Assembly (NCBI RefSeq): GCF_051622035.1
Contig: NC_135367.1
Span: 13,754,501 to 13,818,500 of the forward strand
DNA length: 64,000 nt
Direction of reading: 5' to 3'
DNA from: Arctopsyche grandis
Taxonomy: Eukaryota; Arthropoda; Insecta; Trichoptera; Hydropsychidae
Every line of letters starts with the position of its first letter. Position 1 is the stretch's first letter. Shown here one piece after another: positions 6,076-47,581 of the stretch. Below the pieces are notes generated by a model, which did not search any database, had not been told where the DNA came from, and saw only the letters and a list, made by a program, of their open reading frames with translations. Position numbers and translations under genes: made by a program.

Positions 6076-6447
6076 CAGAGAAATGTTATAATAATAGACT
6101 ATAGAATGCAATATTGTACGCGTATGCGTATGCTGTTGCCGAATGCTAGCTGTCGCCATGAAAACTTTTATATACGATGTTAATTTAATAATATGTTACT
6201 TAAATGATCAATTTACTTATAAAAATGTATCCCATGTTGTTTATTGTGTGTTTTTGAATGCATCGTGCAATTTTTAACGATGCACTTGCCCATTGCCCTT
6301 GCCCAGAGAAGATTTTATCGGACATACGTCGAGCACCAAGCATCAAACACGACTGATGCTAAAATTATTTAGGAATGTCTGTGGACAATCGTCACTTGAC
6401 AACAATATAACGCCTAAAGCCACTTCTATTATTATAACATTTCTCTG
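6076..6447. mobile_element. hAT MITE family A, copy 1
   Basis: The 372-bp element has termini CAGAGAAATGTTATAAT and its inverse. A perfect 8-bp duplication TAATTTAC lies at 6068-6075 and 6448-6455. The interior shares cccatgttgtttattgtgtg and tcggacatacgtcgagca with copies at 23,727 and 46,731. It has no transposase. The 8-bp duplication and CAG start place it with hAT elements. Confidence 0.9.
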
Positions 6448-10621: not shown

Positions 10622-11343
10622 GTAGGATATTAATATAAAATGATTATAATTATGTATAATGATGTGGCTCATGCCGAACAGTTGGTATTATGCACTGTAT
10701 GTATTAATGTTAAGGTTGGTACTACCGAACCGTGTGCGGTAGCGACAGTAGTTGGCGTCGCGCCTTGACGCGCCGGTTGCGTACGCGCATCGATTACCTA
10801 TTGTTCTAAATAAACATAAGATTGAATTGAGATCGTCTTTACTTGTCTCTCTCTCCTGCAATCCTCCCTACTACCCAGCGGACTTCCTATAAAATGGGGG
10901 CTCGTCCGGGATAGGGATTAAGATTGCGAGAAAGGACGCCGACAATCTGACAGGTGGTCGCCATTGAGCACCACGACGACGACATCAGCTGTGACGTCAC
11001 GAGACGGGCGCGAAGACAGCTGTGTCGAGAAAGGTTTCTTTCGCCGAAATTCACCACATTAGCAAATGACTAGCTAAGACGACCTGATGACTGATGACCG
11101 ATGACCACCACCACGACGAGGATATCAGCTGCGACGATTTCATCGAGAGCTGATCACCTGATGCTATATCAGTGTTTGTGTGTGTGTTCAGTGCTGTGTG
11201 CATAAGTCTATATGCCCCACCGTATATTAGTGCAACGATTTTGATGAGTTGTGTTGAAACTCTTTAGGTTATAATTGACATTCTATTTGTTTATTTACCA
11301 TTCTATTTGTTTATTTGTCATTGTATTTAATTTTATTTGCAAA

Positions 11344-12390
11344 ATGGCGACTTTAGAATCGTTTGAGAATGTTAAGCGGAGTTTGAATGAAGCGGAACTG
11401 ATTGAAATAAGAGAGTTATATTTATTTGTGTTTGGAGAAGTTGGAAATTCGAGACAGTTGAGAAAGAATTTGAAAGCATTTTCAGGTTATAGATTAGATA
11501 CTTCATCGGAAGAATATGAAAAGATAATAGAAAAAGTAAAGAATATGCCTGTAAATAATCTCATAATGATATGTCGGATTTTAAATATAAAAATGATCGG
11601 GACAATGAACGATATTGCCGATCGTATTGGATCATTCTTAAACAATTTGGTCCAAGATGAAGAAGAAGATGAAGAACCGAACCAAGATGAAGACGATGAA
11701 GAAGCGAACCAAGCTGAAGACAACGACCAAGAAAACAAGGAAGAAGATGGACAAAGCTTAGGAAGTTTTAAGCAGATCCAAGTATCAAGACGAGATGCGC
11801 CTTCATTGTCATTTCGAGATGTAGAAGACTCTATATCGCCGTTTAACGGAAATGAAGACTATCCTGTGGAGAAATGGATAGCAGAATTTGAAGAGCTGGC
11901 CCAGATGACGAATTTGGACGACTTAAGGAAGCTCATGTATGCCAAAAAGTCATTGACGGGAGTAGCAAAGTTGTTTATACAATCTCAACGGGGAATAACA
12001 ACATGGAAAAAATTGAAAAATATTCTAATAGAAGAATTCAAAACAGTTACAAATAGTGCATTGATACATAAATTATTAATGACTAGAGTAAAACGCCGAG
12101 AAGAGAGCATCAAAGAATATATAATAAATATGCGAGAAATAGGTAGTCGGATAAACCTAGAGGCAGAAGTAATCATCCAGTATGTTATTGATGGCATTCA
12201 AGACGAAAGCTCAAATAAAATAATTTTATATGGAGCTAAAAACTTTAAAGAATTCAAAGAGAAAGTGGAGACATATGAAAAAATTAATGTTAGAAAAGAT
12301 GTTCCCTGGAATTCGAGGAAAGACGACGGAGTGTCAAACAAACACATGTATCAAAAGAAGGATACAGAAGAAAACAAATACAGTAGTAGT
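11344..12390 (+). pseudogene. Retrotransposon gag fossil
   Basis: The reading frame belongs to the element at 10,621-13,663. It begins MATLESFENVKR and has a strongly acidic middle (residues about 100-140, rich in E and D). A capsid-like gag region follows, with the spacing PFNGNEDYPVEKWIAEFEEL and LMYAKKSLTGVAKLF, as in Ty3/Gypsy gag proteins (Retrotrans_gag family). It is a remnant of a broken element and not a host gene. Confidence 0.75.
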
Positions 12391-13234
12391 AGGCGTCGCG
12401 CCTTGACGCGCCGGTTGCGTACGCGCATCGATTGCCTATTGTTCTAAATAAACATAAGATTGAATTGAGATCGTCTTTACTTGTCTCTCTCTCCTGCAAT
12501 CCTCCCTACTACCCAGCGGACTTCCTATAAAATGGGGGCTCGTCCGGGATAGGGATTAAGATTGCGAGAGAAGACGCCGGCAATCTGACAGATGGCGGCC
12601 ATTCGTGTTCGAGAATATTCAACGGGTGTTCCGGAGAAATTGGAGTTGGCGGCTATCATCATAGCATAGTAGCGGACGTGTGCTACGAGGACCCTGATGA
12701 CTGTGATGACCAACGACTACCAAGATGACAAGGACATCGACGATGACATCAGCCGCGACGGAGTATGACGCGTCAGCGTCGAGGACGGAGCGTGACCTCA
12801 CAAGCCGCGCGCAATTTGACATCGCACGCGACGATGACAGATGACGAGACGAGCTTACAGACGACCATCAGCTGAGAATCATAGTGTGATTGTGAGTGTG
12901 TTTGTATGTGTTGTTCATTGCGAATATAGTGAAGGTAAACGCGTTTTGTTGGCGGTGCAGAGGCGCGTCGAATTCCAAGGCTGATGATCCACGGGGATCT
13001 ATCACGACGGCTTGTTGGCACGGTCACTCTTCGAGGTTTCAACAGACGGTTGGACCTGATGGTGCCTGAGGGTTTTTATAGGGGATCGGTGTCAAGGGTC
13101 GGTGGTGCCACGTGTGAGGTGACGCTGAAGAACGAAGAAACGCTAATGTATGGCTACGAACCACGAATATTTTTATTGTTTACGACGAAATATGTTATTT
13201 TTAATGCTGATAAACAATTTTTATTTTAAATGAA

Positions 13235-23726: not shown

Positions 23727-24083
23727 CAGAGAAATACAATATTCATAGAAATGGCTTTAGGTGTTCTTTTGTTGTCAAGTGACATTCTGTCCACGGACAG
23801 ATCTAAATAATTTTAGCATCAGTCGTATTTGACACTTGGTGCTCGACGTATGTCTGATAAAATCTTCTCTGTTTGTTTATATTACTCGCAAGATGGGCAA
23901 GCATCGGTAAAAATTGCACAATACATTCAAAAACACACAATAAACAACATGGGATACATTTTTATAAGTAAATTGATCCGATTGTATTCCGTGCGATGTA
24001 GCGTATTTATAGAGACGTACCGCGTAAAATTGACAACAATTATTTATTCGTAAGGGCCCCTCTATTCTTAATACATCTCTCTG
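23727..24083. mobile_element. hAT MITE family A, copy 2
   Basis: The 357-bp copy runs CAGAGAAATAC to TCTCTCTG and has the perfect duplication GTCTAAAC at 23,719-23,726 and 24,084-24,091. Its interior matches 46,731-47,087 in inverse orientation over nearly the whole length (gtcaagtgacattctgtcc, acttacgcggta-type words). Confidence 0.9.
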
Positions 24084-32534: not shown

Positions 32535-35500
32535 ATGACGCTTTTTTTTGATAGTAAAGTTGACTTTGGCGAAGACGTTATTACTACTATACTTGAATGG
32601 CATCAAATGGAATCATTGTTGGCTATCGCTTCTTACAGTCAAAAGAAAGGCGGTATTATATCCATAGTTGATGAATATGTAAGTTTATTTCCATTTAAAA
32701 TTTTAATCACACGTAGTCTTATTCATGAAGCATCGAAAATTTTCAGGGGAACTCTTTTGAAGAGAATGAACAACTCTCACAGACAGGGCAACAAGCGAGC
32801 GCTCTCTCTTGGCATCCCCAAAAGTCACTTTTGATAGTCGGATGGGAGGGTGGAAATCTTCACTTGTGGAGGAATGGCGTAGGTTGGCAATCGTTACAGG
32901 CTCCTCATTCGGCACCACCACTTTTACTCGCTTGGAGTACCGGAGGAGGTCGTTTAATTATATCAGATGCAGCTAGCGCTGTTACTGGTTGGAAATCGAC
33001 AACGTCTGGCCTCCTGATGGCTTATCATTTAACTGTTGACGAACCGCTCACTCACGTTGCATTCTGTCCTCATGATACAGGCGTCAGCGAAGGTATTGTA
33101 AGAGGTTTAGCAAAAGCTGCTATCGCCGGAGATGAAGGAGCTTTGGATGTATTAGCATCTTGGAGACCGCGAACAGCTCCACGTGTTGCTGGAGCACCTG
33201 GTGATAATCATTCATTGTATGCAGCTCAACAAAATGGGAATATTCTTTATATAGATGACTCTGGTACATGTTCGGAAATATTACCGTCTATTGGTATAGT
33301 ACATTTTATGGAAATGAGTTCATCCAATTGCTTGATTATTGCATGGGAAAGTGGAGGCACGCTCAGCTTGACATCATTTACGTCTAGCATTAATAGAAAA
33401 GTTTTGGATGCCAAAATGCACGTCAAGATGACAACCCGAGTTGGTTTAAGTATATGTAGCGCTGGAGGATCATTGATTGCTATTTTATCTGGTGAAACGG
33501 TTGTGCGGATTTGGGATAGTGAAACAAACGATAATTTCACTCTGCCATTTGATGAGAAATCCCCCACACACAATACTGAGATTTTTACATGCATGGCTTA
33601 CAGTTCATCGAATTCCGCCTTATGCTGTGGATCAAATCAAGGCAAAATATTCATCTGGCGCAAAGATCATCATGGCACTTGGAACATGATAAACACATCT
33701 TCAGTGAAGGGAAATGTCAAACAGATATGTTGGGGATCCGAAGCCGGTGTAAGACCATTGCTAGCTGTTAATAGTATAACGAGTGTATTGATTTTGAGAG
33801 AGCAATCGATTTGTTGGGGTTATACTAATCAAGTTTGGGGCATCCAAAAAGGTCCTACTAATATCATGCTGGAAGGCCTCAAAGGAGCTGTTACTAATAT
33901 AAATACAGATTTGGGCATCAAAGCATTATGTCTCAACGAGACTTATGTAGCTGTTACTGATGGTAAATTTATTCAAGTAAGTGAATCAGCTACATTTCTG
34001 AATTTCATTTTTAATCTATGAATAAATCACTAAATATATATTCATGAAAAAGTAAGATATGAAATATGTACTATTGTAGTATTTTTTAATGGAAAAATCA
34101 ATTATAATACATTTTGAAATTTATATTGCAGGTATTTAAAATTAGTAAGGATACATTTAACTTTTTACCGATACATAAATTTTCCTGGTCAACTGAAACC
34201 CTGCTTATACATGAAGAAACTTTAGTAGGTATAGTAGGAAATCACATTGAAGCTAAAACTACTTCAGGTATCTCATTAGGACCTCTTCCAACTATCGATA
34301 ATGAGGGTGAACCCATTGGAATTTCACGCACCGATTGCTATTTGGCCATAGCTACAATGGATGGTAGTATAAAAATTGTAGAAATAACAAAAAAAGGATT
34401 TCGTTCTCATTATAACCCAAAAAATTGTTATCAACTCTTTGACGATTTTGGTGAAATAATGTACGCTTCGGTCAATAGTGCAGGAAGATTAGTGTGTTTG
34501 GCTATAGCATCGGCTAATCTTGTTCCAGAACCAACATTATATGTATGGGACGCTGCTAATGATACATTGAATTTTATCGACCTCAGAGGTAAAGAAGGTG
34601 AAACTTGCATTCCAATAACTATATGTTGGGATTCAGTAGATCCTCGTTTAGTCGCTTGTCACATACGGTCATCCAAGGAAGATTCAATCAAATGCTATTT
34701 CGTACACAATGAAGGATTCGTTGAGTACCGAAACTGGTCTAAAGAAAATCCAAATGGACAAAATTTATGTTCCGTATCCGCTCCATTTGTGATATGTATG
34801 CAAGATGCAAAATTAGTCAAAAATATCATGTTTGAATTTATTGGATCGGAAGATTGTGAATCAGTCATCCGCGGTCATTTGTTAGATTATTTGTATCATA
34901 TGACTGTTGGAAATATGGAGCAAGCGGTGGTATCGATTGGTCATACTAAAGCAGGAGAAGCTGTCTGGGAAGCGCTGGCTCGTTCCTGCGTACATCAGAA
35001 GCGTTTGGATGTAGCGTCTGTGTGTTTGGCGAAAATGAACAATGTTAAAGGAGCTCTCGCACTGCATATGGCTATGGAAAATCCGAAACTAGGTCTCAAA
35101 TCCCGTACTGCAATACTGGCCCTGCACTTGGGTATGTTAGATGAAGCGAAGTCATTACTGGAAGAAGATGGTCGCTTCGATTTGTTGTCTCGTATGACGG
35201 CGGCTACGAGAGGTGGCCTGGAAAAGTTGACTCAGAGTTCGGTGGAAGGTGAGGCTACGTTGCTGGTTAAAAATGCCTATTTTAAACTGGGATGCTTGAA
35301 ACGGGATTCCCATGCGCTGGATGAAGCATCAGTGGCATTTCAAAAGGCTGGCGTAGAAGTTCCACACGTACCTCGCATGCTATTGCAGTCAGGTCAGATC
35401 GATTCTCTCAAACGCAAGGTGGAAAGTTCTCAAAATCCAGAACTACATTCGTGGTGGGCACACTATCAAGAGAGCCAGGGAGAGCTTGAGGGAGCCCTCG

Positions 35501-37551
35501 AAGCCTATGCCAAGGCAGGTGATGCTGGCGCTCAAGCTCGCTTACTCTGTCATATGGATCGTTTGCAGGACGCTCAAAGTTTAGCCGATAATCCTTCAGC
35601 AGCTTATTATATAGCTCGTCACTTGGAACTTCAGCCTGAGCAAGCTGAAGAATCTATTAAGGTTTTTTTTTTAAATATATTGAAGGTAATACTTGATTTT
35701 AAAACTTGATAGAAATAAGGCTTGTCGATATATTTAGTATTACATGCGAGCTGGAGCATCAGCAGCAGCCGTACGTTGTGCAACAGAGGCTCAACTTTGG
35801 GATCAAGTAGCCAAAGCTGGTGCTGCAACGGCAACCATTGGAGGAAATGCACACACATTATTAGCAGCAGCAGCTTTGGAAAAAGTTGGCCGTGCACCAG
35901 CAGCGGCATCCCTCTATCATCAAGCCGGTATGTTTCGTCTAATTTTTTACACAATTTAATATTATGTGTATGTATAAAGAATTATGTAAATTTTTAGGTA
36001 AACTTCACAAAGCGGTGGAAGTAGCTTTGAGTGCAGAAATGGATTCTGGAGTCGAGGCTTTAACTCGAGTAGCTAATTCTGTCATTGCTGGAGGACCTGG
36101 TAGTTGTTCTCCTGCCTTGGCGCGACAGTTAGTTACCTCGTTGTTATCCACGAATCAACATCAACATGCCGCTATTATTTTGGCCACTGCTAAATTGGTA
36201 TGATGAAACAGTTTAACTAGAATTTTTTTACAATGAGTTACATATATTGGTTTATTAATATGTAGTTCGACGAAGCTTTGGATTTGATAGAAGAGCACAA
36301 TATAGAAATATCTGAGGAGTTAGCAGAACGATTGACACCTGAAAAGGAATCACCAAATCGAGCAGAAATTTTAGAAAAGTTAGCCGATCTGTTGGGACAG
36401 CACGGTTATTATCATTTAGCTGCGAAAAAACTTACACAAGCTGGAGATAAGGTAGAATGTAATGTTGTGTATTAAAATTCAGTTCAAAATGCATGTAACT
36501 AAGTTGTCTGATTTTTATTTGTATCTTTTAGACAAAATATTTTTTTTGAAATGTGTTTTAAAATCAATGTTGTATTATTTTTTACTATTAATAAATAATA
36601 TTTTGATAATATTGAACATTAGGTGGCTGCTATGCGTTGGTTGGTAAAATCAGGCGACGTAGACAAGATGGTATTCTTTGCATCAGTTTCAAGAGATCGG
36701 ACTGTTTATTTGATGGCAGCTAGGGCACTTCAAGCGGCTGATTGGCGTGCTAGACCAGACCTACTGCGTCATGTTGCGTCGTTTTATACTAAAGCAAGAG
36801 CTCCTCGTCCTCTAGCTGCTTTTTACGCAGCTTGCGCACAACAAGAAATAGACGATTACCAGGTATTCAATAAAAAAAATAACATAACAAAAGCATATTT
36901 AATATACATACATATGCACATTGAATCAACTTCAACTTGCAGAATTATGAAAAAGCTGCTGGAGCATTTTCCGAAGCTCTTAGGTGTCTCACACGCTCTA
37001 ACGATCCTATGGCGGGTGAGTTTTTAGTTTTCAATCTATATATCAAAGTTGAAAGTAATTATAAGTATTTTTATTTAGCAACTGATGCTGCAATGCTTCA
37101 GACTCAAGCTGATCATGTTCGACAGTACCTGAGTGTTGAAAAGTCTTTTAATCATGGAGATTATCAAGGAGGTACATATTTTCCCCGTTTGGACAATGAA
37201 ATTTTTAGTCAAGATTCTATGTTCATTTTCATATTTCATTAGGATTATCAGCTGCTCAGCAGTTGCTGGATGAATTAGATGATAGAGGACCAGTACGTCC
37301 TTATCATCTGTTACAACTCATGGCGACGAAAAGTGCAGATGCTGGGTATACTTCCAATGCCAAAGGTAGTAAATTGTCAAGCGTATTAATTATTTAAATG
37401 ACTCAAAAATGTAATTAATTTAATTTTGATAGAATTTGCTGACCAAGCAAAAGTTTTGGAAAAGCGCGCTGAATTTTTGGAACCTGAAAGAAGAGGAAAT
37501 GAGACTCCGCCGTCTGACCAAGAAGTGCCTGAAGATTTAATAGATAACTGA
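32535..37551 (+). CDS. IFT140: Intraflagellar transport protein 140
   Basis: Model: join 32,535-32,678, 32,747-33,976, 34,132-35,661, 35,738-35,927, 35,998-36,197, 36,266-36,451, 36,623-36,862, 36,943-37,015, 37,079-37,171, 37,243-37,365, 37,433-37,551; 1375 codons plus stop. IFT140 is a core subunit of IFT-A, which drives retrograde transport in cilia and delivers membrane cargo; in insects it serves ciliated sensory neurons. Seen: N-terminal WD40 blades (LSWHPQKSLLIVGWEGGNLHLW, ETVVRIWDSETN, SNSALCCGSNQGKIFIWR), a second propeller, then TPR-like helices (SVCLAKMNNVKGALAL, YYHLAAKKLTQAGDKVAAMRW, KSGDVDKMVFFASVSRD), which match human IFT140 (1462 aa) in order. The ATG at 32,535 was chosen because MTLFFDSKV aligns with the family start. 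A polyadenylation signal candidate lies at 37,820-37,825. Confidence 0.95.
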
Positions 37552-46665: not shown

Positions 46666-46730
46666 ATCTGTCCCGCGTACTAAGGGCAGGGCTTTTTTCC
46701 CATGTATCGCGGTGAAACGGTGTTCCAGCA

Positions 46731-47087
46731 CAGAGAGATGTAATAAGAATAGAGGGGCCCTTACGAATAAATAATTGTTGTCAATTTTACGCGGTACGTC
46801 TCTATAAATACGTTACATCGCACGGAATAAAATCGGATCAATTTACTTATAAAAATCTATCCCATGTTGTTTATTGTGTGTTCTTGAATGTATTGTGCAA
46901 TTTTTACCGATGCTTGCCCATCTTGCGAGTAATATAAACAAACAGAGAAGTTTTTATCGGACATACGTCGAGCACCAAGTGTCAAATACGACTGATGCTA
47001 AAATTATTTAGATCTGTCCGTGGACAGAATGTCACTTGAGAACAAAAGAACACCTAAAGCCACTTCTATTAATATTACATTTCTCTG
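46731..47087. mobile_element. hAT MITE family A, copy 3
   Basis: The 357-bp copy runs CAGAGAGATGTAATAAG to ACATTTCTCTG, with the perfect 8-bp duplication TTCCAGCA at 46,723-46,730 and 47,088-47,095. It is near-identical to 23,727-24,083 in inverse orientation, so the two moved recently. Confidence 0.92.
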
Positions 47088-47188
47088 TTCCAGCACCTTT
47101 TTGTCTCAGCATTTTTTAAGTATCAAACGAATATTCTATATAATATAATCTTTTTCAATAAAAAAAATTACAAGAAGTGAGTTCTGGT

Positions 47189-47220
47189 CAGAGAAATGTT
47201 ATAATAATAACATTTCTCTG
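47189..47220. mobile_element. 32-bp TIR-only hAT element
   Basis: The sequence CAGAGAAATGTTATAATAA with CATTTCTCTG consists of two opposed family-A termini and nothing else. It is flanked by the perfect 8-bp duplication GTTCTGGT at 47,181-47,188 and 47,221-47,228. Family-A copy 3 lies 100 bp to the left. Confidence 0.85.
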
Positions 47221-47581
47221 GTTCTGGTACCTTTTTTCCAAAAAAAAGCCCCGAACAAGAGTAACATGTAAATTGGTCGAATGCTATTCTACTAATGACG
47301 TTTTCATCGAAAATCTGTTCACTGAAAAACGTATTTGTCGAATCACCAGACATTTACGTAGGACTACTTATAGCAATTATGCGGCCATTAAAATTTCACG
47401 TGATGTACAATGATTTCAATATTGTATGCCGTACGGGACAAAGTCAGACAAAATAAACAAGTTCTGATCAGGAATACTGGAGTGAATCAAGAATCTTACC
47501 AAGATTTGAACCTCGTACCTTTCGTCTTTCGATCTATCGATCCAAAATCACTTTACCCACAGCAGTAATAATTACTTTAAA

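What the first reader, a model, noticed from the sequence alone, without database searches (positions are those of the whole stretch)
47189..47220. A 32-bp transposon made only of its two inverted ends, with a perfect target duplication
The sequence between two copies of GTTCTGGT is nothing but two opposed family-A hAT termini. Its full-length relative (46,731-47,087) lies 100 bp away with its own duplication. Either the two ends alone were mobilised, which would set an extreme lower limit for a hAT substrate, or an inserted MITE lost its entire interior precisely.
Basis: partly seen in the sequence, partly recalled or inferred. Interest (0 to 1): 0.7.

Follow-up and report, generated by a model that had tools for sequence, protein, structure and literature searches.

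The report
Scar of a departed P-type transposon
The 32-letter sequence is most likely not a tiny jumping gene but the scar left when a larger P-element-like transposon was cut out, one of dozens of similar sequences in this animal genome.

Summary
In detail: 32 bp made only of two opposed transposon tips lies between perfect GTTCTGGT repeats. The interpretation changes twice. (1) The family looks P, not hAT: a 3,530-bp relative has a 24-bp terminal repeat, a perfect 8-bp duplication and a P-type transposase, and the window's MITEs match it and a sister copy at 74-84%. (2) The 32-mer is one of a class. The genome holds 58 exact-tip units of 22-52 bp but 8 of 54-114 bp; reversed-pattern controls gave 0. 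The 50 listed were read: 38 independent sites, 22 with a duplication at <=1 mismatch. None of the 50 keeps the TAGA found 20-23 nt inside nine of ten full-length tips; junctions show overlaps or AT-rich filler. Laboratory P-element excision junctions look alike (PMC2895639). Best reading: an excision scar sealed by end joining. Against it: 16 of 38 sites lack a clear duplication, retained lengths do not peak at 17 nt, and one 29-bp form recurs at five sites, so a mobile minimal unit is not excluded. No filled, empty or sister-species allele was seen.

The parts
47189..47220 (.). 32-bp TIR-only unit: left tip (readable as 17 nt plus one A, or as 21 nt with 3 nt shared) and 14 nt of right tip; proposed excision scar
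47181..47188 (+). left copy of the 8-bp target duplication GTTCTGGT
47221..47228 (+). right copy of the 8-bp target duplication GTTCTGGT
46731..47087 (+). neighbouring 357-bp MITE of the same family with its own duplication TTCCAGCA (46723-46730, 47088-47095)
6076..6447 (+). 372-bp MITE, 23-bp perfect TIR, duplication TAATTTAC; its left tip matches the first 21 nt of the 32-mer exactly
23727..24083 (-). 357-bp MITE, 96.6% identical to 46731-47087, duplication GTCTAAAC

Best explanation
A P-superfamily MITE with tips like copy 6076-6447 once sat at this site and made the GTTCTGGT duplication when it inserted (inferred). A P-type transposase from a related element later cut it out (inferred). 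In Drosophila, P transposase cuts one strand at the element end and the other 17 nt inside the TIR, so that the broken chromosome ends carry 17-nt tails of TIR sequence (PMC7776569 passage; PMC2895639 passage). End joining united such tails here: 17 nt of the left tip plus one A plus 14 nt of the right tip give the 32-mer; equally, the junction can be read as sharing 3 nt (ATA). The unit is then a repair scar, not a transposon, and its flanking duplication is inherited from the departed element. Shown here: the anatomy, the duplication, a genome-wide class of such units, limited tip retention, and a P-type transposase in a relative. Inferred: the excision itself, the 17-nt cut in this family, and the repair route.
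For: 58 exact-tip units at 22-52 bp against 8 at 54-114 bp, controls 0. Of the 50 listed places, 38 are independent; 22 of 38 keep a duplication at <=1 mismatch, 10 of them perfect; L059, counted among the other 16, is perfect if read as a 30-bp unit. 0 of 50 units contain TAGA/TCTA between the 11-nt tips, while 9 of 10 tips of the five full copies read have TAGA at positions 20-23; interior G+C is 25 of 544 bases. Under uniform breakpoints about a third of units would lack it at both ends (34%, computed with a threshold one base generous; a simple null that ignores filler and microhomology). Junctions over 43 sites: 20 with overlap >=1 nt, 3 blunt, 5 with 1-3 nt filler, 15 with >=4 nt filler. 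A 56-bp unit reads as 17 (18 with one tip variant) + filler + 17 nt. Same anatomy in part of the P-element junctions of PMC2895639 Table 1 (section 7 read). P-type transposase in a 3,530-bp relative with 24-bp TIR and perfect duplication GCTCTATG: PF12017, PF21787, PF21788 in one frame and PF21789 in the next; PDB 6p5a/6pe2 at E 3.3e-18.
Against: Retained lengths do not peak at 17: 86 tips spread from 6 to 24 nt (12-14 nt: 39; 16: 11; 17: 6; 18: 7; 19: 13; 21 or more: 6), best of 13 tip variants taken, and AT-rich sequence after position 17 blurs the boundary. 16 of 38 independent sites lack a duplication at <=1 mismatch as listed, including other 32-bp sites (L003, L004, L071). One identical 29-bp form, in either orientation, occurs at five sites, four with different perfect duplications. 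The exact tip variant of the transposase-bearing relative (CAGAGAAGTGT) gave no TIR-only unit (0 matches). The relative's transposase is interrupted in L082, and the 4,504-bp sister copy in L081 has no matching 8-bp flanks. In PMC2895639 Table 1 the 20 long-microhomology junctions (of 68 sequenced) lose most or all TIR, so tip-keeping is not the only P outcome. No filled or empty allele of any site was seen.
Confidence: 0.68

Rival explanations
1. Abortive gap repair: after excision the gap was copied from a sister chromatid or homologue that still held the element; synthesis stopped early from both sides and the new strands annealed inside the TIRs.
For: Gives the same product with duplications kept and microhomology junctions. 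Of the 8 units at 54-114 bp, the 89-, 97- and 106-bp ones keep inner MITE sequence and the 55-bp one keeps 24 nt of a tip. Such copying, often incomplete, is described for P (PMC1562414 passage; PMC2895639 passage).
Against: Should give a broad range of retained lengths; there are 8 units at 54-114 bp against 58 at 22-52 bp, and 0 of 50 short units keep the TAGA at 20-23 nt. Longer internally deleted copies could not be counted (search for 341-401 bp unanswered).
Confidence: 0.13
2. The TIR-only unit itself is mobile: transposase can mobilise two bare tips of about 30 bp.
For: An identical 29-bp sequence at five sites, four with different perfect duplications (L046, L052, L062, L065; L053 without); 22 of 38 independent sites with duplications at <=1 mismatch.
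Against: Most units differ in length and interior. The recurrent 29-, 26- and 32-bp forms have TIR-TIR overlaps of 4, 6 and 3 nt, so recurrence by repair is plausible. D. melanogaster P needs at least 138 and 216 bp of its ends; the same paper suggests about 100 bp may do in Anopheles (PMC1562414 passage). Were the family hAT, Hermes with 50 bp of left end is immobile and about 220 bp of both ends are needed (PMC10368747 section 15).
Confidence: 0.08
3. Transposase-independent deletion: the inverted tips fold together during replication and the interior is lost by slippage between short repeats in the TIRs, like nearly precise excision of bacterial Tn10 (recalled; one search gave only one listing, not followed).
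For: 20 of 43 junctions have overlaps of 1-8 nt; the 26-bp form joins at a TTATAA present in both tips.
Against: 15 of 43 junctions carry >=4 nt of filler, some of it by eye like copied tip sequence, and two sites (L030, L042) have inverted flanks like fold-back rearrangements; these look more like break repair.
Confidence: 0.08

Closest known systems
Drosophila P-element excision repair junctions (Chan et al. 2010, PMC2895639)
   Same: 8-bp duplication on both sides, up to 17 nt of each TIR kept, junction by microhomology, blunt join or short, often AT-rich insertion (section 7, Table 1).
   Different: Those were recovered in laboratory crosses from one marked P insertion in flies lacking Rad51, and the 20 long-microhomology junctions lose most or all TIR; here the units are genomic sequences at many sites of an unnamed animal, with different tips and some tips matching 21-24 nt.
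P-MITEs of Anopheles gambiae (PMC1562414)
   Same: Non-autonomous copies with P-like ends and 8-bp duplications (passages), like the window's 357/372-bp copies.
   Different: They have P-like ends of under 100 bp and a central region unrelated to P; the word 'footprint' does not occur in that paper, and the passages I saw mention no TIR-only units.
hAT MITEs, e.g. Mar of Drosophila (PMC3517528)
   Same: 8-bp duplications and ends beginning CAG (CAG(G/A)GGTAGGC) (passages).
   Different: The transposase found with ends of the present type is P-type.

Membership tests
P superfamily of DNA transposons | Transposase with P-type HTH, RNase H-like and GTP-binding domains in an element with the family's type of ends | tested here: met
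   3,530-bp element in L082 (C6:27173478-27177007): PF12017 3.4e-19, PF21787 2.3e-43, PF21788 1.5e-34 in one frame, PF21789 3.2e-15 in the next; a 625-aa frame in L081 has all four; PDB 6p5a E 3.3e-18. Its tip CAGAGAAGTGT differs from the MITE tip CAGAGAAATGT at one of 11 positions. Six other PF21789 loci (L075-L080, 3.1 kb each) show no such tips.
P superfamily of DNA transposons | Window MITEs share terminal and subterminal sequence with that element | tested here: met
   6076-6447: positions 98-280 match L082 at 80%, and 98-372 match the sister copy in L081 at 74% up to its last base (E 3.6e-45); 46731-47087: positions 106-211 match both at 83-84%.
P superfamily of DNA transposons | 8-bp target duplication | tested here: met
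   Perfect at four of five full MITE copies read and at the 3,530-bp element; one mismatch at the fifth. The L081 copy has none.
P superfamily of DNA transposons | N-terminal THAP DNA-binding domain | tested here: inconclusive
   No THAP zinc-finger match in the four frames scanned; a weak THAP9_C match (E 0.0052, below its cut-off) in one; introns were not modelled.
hAT superfamily | hAT transposase (Pfam PF05699) within elements with these ends | not tested
   The search did not complete.
hAT superfamily | Target preference; nnnTAnnn for Buster is in PMC3517528, nTnnnnAn for Ac is recalled | tested here: inconclusive
   23 duplications of TIR-only units, symmetrised: G1 0.57, T2 0.41, T3 0.65, A6 0.65, A7 0.41, C8 0.57; the five full copies: T4 0.7, A5 0.7. 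Fits neither clearly.
P-element excision footprint | Both target duplications kept, with only TIR tips and junction sequence between | tested here: met
   Met at the window site and at 22 of 38 independent sites (the window among them) at <=1 mismatch; not met at 16 of 38, L059 among them unless read as 30 bp.
P-element excision footprint | Not more than 17 nt of each TIR retained | tested here: inconclusive
   0 of 50 units keep TAGA at 20-23; positions 18-21 (AATA) cannot be told from AT filler; one 55-bp unit keeps 24 nt.
P-element excision footprint | Arises on transposase-induced excision | not testable with these tools
   Needs an excision assay or population alleles.

The most novel reading that the evidence does not exclude
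Two bare tips of about 29-32 bp are a mobile unit: the 29-bp form at five sites, four with different perfect duplications, transposed as such, far below the end requirements cited here for P and hAT elements.
Probability: 0.07. Interest if true: 0.85.

Novelty: new member of a known kind. Interest (0 to 1): 0.42.

Why it matters
If right, genomes carry a readable record of P-type excision: each TIR-only scar marks a place where an element came and left, and its junction shows how the break was mended. With dozens of sites in one genome, repair signatures and excision history could be read without an experiment. It also warns that tiny 'elements' with perfect target duplications need not have transposed.

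Tried and rejected
Origin from the neighbour 46731-47087: unlikely, its tip matches 19 of 21 nt while 6076-6447 matches 21 of 21.

Viral-contig scan for a 20-nt tip: one hit, L001, with no opposed tip in the 801 bases I read and no 32-mer-like unit in the locus; taken as chance. Phage collection, 46731-47087 as query: no match. tRNA scan and Rfam at gathering threshold: nothing in the window.

Sampling: of 20 ten-kilobase stretches, 13 were chosen without regard to known copies (three on C1, two each on C2, C3, C4, C5, C7). A scan of 273,121 bases held (L001, L002, L006, L007 left out) for paired tips with a duplication at <=1 mismatch found pairs only in the window and in L005 and L014, which overlap each other. 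Given up as inefficient.

Empty site of the 49-bp unit in the P-type copies: among sequences held, no match ran across the joined flanks without an insert; most copies carry the 49-bp unit and L084/L064 the 38-bp form; L044, L051 and L005/L014 matched on one flank only. Neither for nor against.

TIR-only units with the exact tips of the transposase-bearing relative: 0 matches, a negative result for the general rule.

Never answered: count of copies of 341-401 bp, copies of the host repeat around the 26-bp group, hAT transposase, copies of 6076-6447.

Literature: ten searches listed no title or abstract start that describes genome-wide TIR-only scars. I saw passages of PMC3517528, PMC3942097, PMC3212995, PMC7385995, PMC7776569, PMC1562414, PMC10368747 (plus its section 15) and PMC2895639 (plus its section 7), and listings of the rest, so I do not claim that none is in print.

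Full report
What is there. At 47189-47220 the window holds CAGAGAAATGTTATAATAATAACATTTCTCTG between GTTCTGGT and GTTCTGGT. Three longer copies of the family are in the window, 6076-6447 (372 bp), 23727-24083 and 46731-47087 (357 bp each), with perfect 8-bp duplications. The 32-mer is the first 21 nt of the 6076 tip and the last 14 nt of its other tip with 3 nt shared; the neighbour, 101 nt away, matches 19 of 21 nt and is unlikely to be the parent.

How many. The window's genome is 475.7 Mb in 189 contigs. The pattern for two exact 11-nt tips 0-30 nt apart (22-52 bp) gives 58 places, the reversed pattern none. The class of 54-114 bp gives 8 places and no control match. The count of 341-401-bp copies did not complete. 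Of the 58 places 50 were listed; flanks of these 50 were read. Twelve share flanks with another place and are taken as copies of two host repeats, leaving 38 independent sites (L044 assigned by hand, the L062-L068 link set aside). Duplications at <=1 mismatch: 24 of 50 places, against a shuffled mean of 0.63 and maximum of 5; by independent site 22 of 38, of which 10 perfect. L059, one of the other 16, is perfect if read as a 30-bp unit.

What the interiors say. The 50 units run from 22 to 49 bp. The space between the 11-nt tips is almost pure A+T (25 G or C in 544 bases), and none of 50 units contains TAGA or TCTA there, while nine of ten tips of the five full copies read have TAGA at positions 20-23; the exception is one end of the 932-bp copy in L014. 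If breakpoints were uniform under the length limit, about a third of units would lack it at both ends (34%, threshold one base generous, filler and microhomology ignored); all 50 do. Of 43 sites (the 38 plus five of the 8 longer units), 20 junctions share 1 or more nt, 3 are blunt, 5 have 1-3 nt and 15 have 4 or more nt of filler. Retained tips range from 6 to 24 nt with no peak at 17; positions 18-21 are AATA, so filler and tip cannot be told apart there. Among the 8 longer units, those of 56, 62, 66 and 72 bp are tips plus AT-rich filler, the 56-mer reading as 17 (or 18) + filler + 17; the 55-mer keeps 24 nt of one tip; the 89-, 97- and 106-bp units keep inner MITE sequence.

Which superfamily. 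A search for the P-type domain PF21789 found 44 matches in the genome and none in the 14 control genomes. Four matches lie about 0.5-2 kb from 49- or 38-bp units. In L082 a 3,530-bp element has a 24-bp perfect TIR (CAGAGAAGTGTTATACAATAGAAG), a perfect duplication GCTCTATG and two open frames with P-type domains, interrupted between them; the one solved-structure match of the first frame is P transposase 6p5a/6pe2. L081 holds a sister copy with a 625-aa frame but without matching 8-bp flanks. The window's MITEs match these two copies at 74-84% in their end regions. So the family is most likely P, not hAT. Limits: the MITE tip differs from the relative's at one of 11 positions, the six other PF21789 loci fetched (L075-L080, 3.1 kb each) show no such tips, no THAP zinc finger was found in the frames scanned, and the hAT search did not complete.

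Mechanism. P transposase cuts 17 nt inside the TIR on one strand (PMC7776569 passage), and the ends left after excision carry 17-nt tails (PMC2895639 passage). In Drosophila lacking Rad51, many repaired P donors read as duplication, up to 17 nt of one TIR, microhomology or insertion, up to 17 nt of the other TIR, duplication; 20 long-microhomology junctions of 68 lose most or all TIR (PMC2895639 section 7; number sequenced). The window's 32-mer has the tip-keeping plan, and my pattern, which needs both tips, could not see the other kind. I therefore take it as an excision scar. The chain from excision to joining is inferred; no allele with the parent element was seen. What fits badly: 16 of 38 sites without a clear duplication, among them the 32-bp sites L003, L004 and L071; the identical 29-bp form at five sites; no peak at 17 nt; no TIR-only unit with the exact tips of the transposase-bearing relative.

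Rivals. Early-stopped gap repair gives the same kind of product but should give a broader length range. Slippage between TIRs explains overlaps but not long filler. A mobile minimal unit would explain the recurrent 29-mer, but D. melanogaster P is reported to need at least 138 and 216 bp of its ends, with about 100 bp suggested for Anopheles (PMC1562414 passage), and Hermes, a hAT element, about 220 bp of each (PMC10368747 section 15).

Verdict. The kind is known from the laboratory; here it appears as a set of natural sites.

Noticed in passing
L030 around 121-153 and L042 around 121-153: Two TIR-only units have inverted, not direct, flanks (CCCTCAAG/CTTGAGGG; CCTAAAAT/ATGTTAGG) near MITE end sequence; by eye they look like fold-back (template-switch) rearrangements of a MITE end.
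   Followed up: partly
L082:2311-2359, L081:5414-5462, L083:2102-2150, L084:2684-2721: A 49-bp (38-bp in L084) TIR-only unit with near-matching flanks sits about 0.5-2 kb from the P-type transposase domain and, in L082, inside the 3,530-bp element; it seems to have been copied along with these elements.
   Followed up: partly
L014:5404-6335: A 932-bp family copy with perfect duplication GCTTATGT carries what looks like another inserted element with its own inverted ends (ACACTGTTCGACA...TGTCGAACAGTGT) near one tip.
   Followed up: no
L059:121-150: A 30-bp unit with perfect duplication GTCGTATG has a 22-bp perfect palindrome and then a second CTCTG (CTCTGGTCCTCTG), as if one end had been joined twice.
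   Followed up: no
G000 C4:32050189-32050215 and C4:32050818-32050914: A 27-bp TIR-only unit (L048) and a 97-bp internally deleted copy lie about 600 bp apart.
   Followed up: no
window 11275-12447: A 390-aa open frame with a weak retrotransposon gag match (PF03732, E 2.1e-4, below its cut-off).
   Followed up: no
window 32729-35709: Open frames match IFT140 beta-propeller and TPR domains; the window looks animal, species not identified.
   Followed up: no
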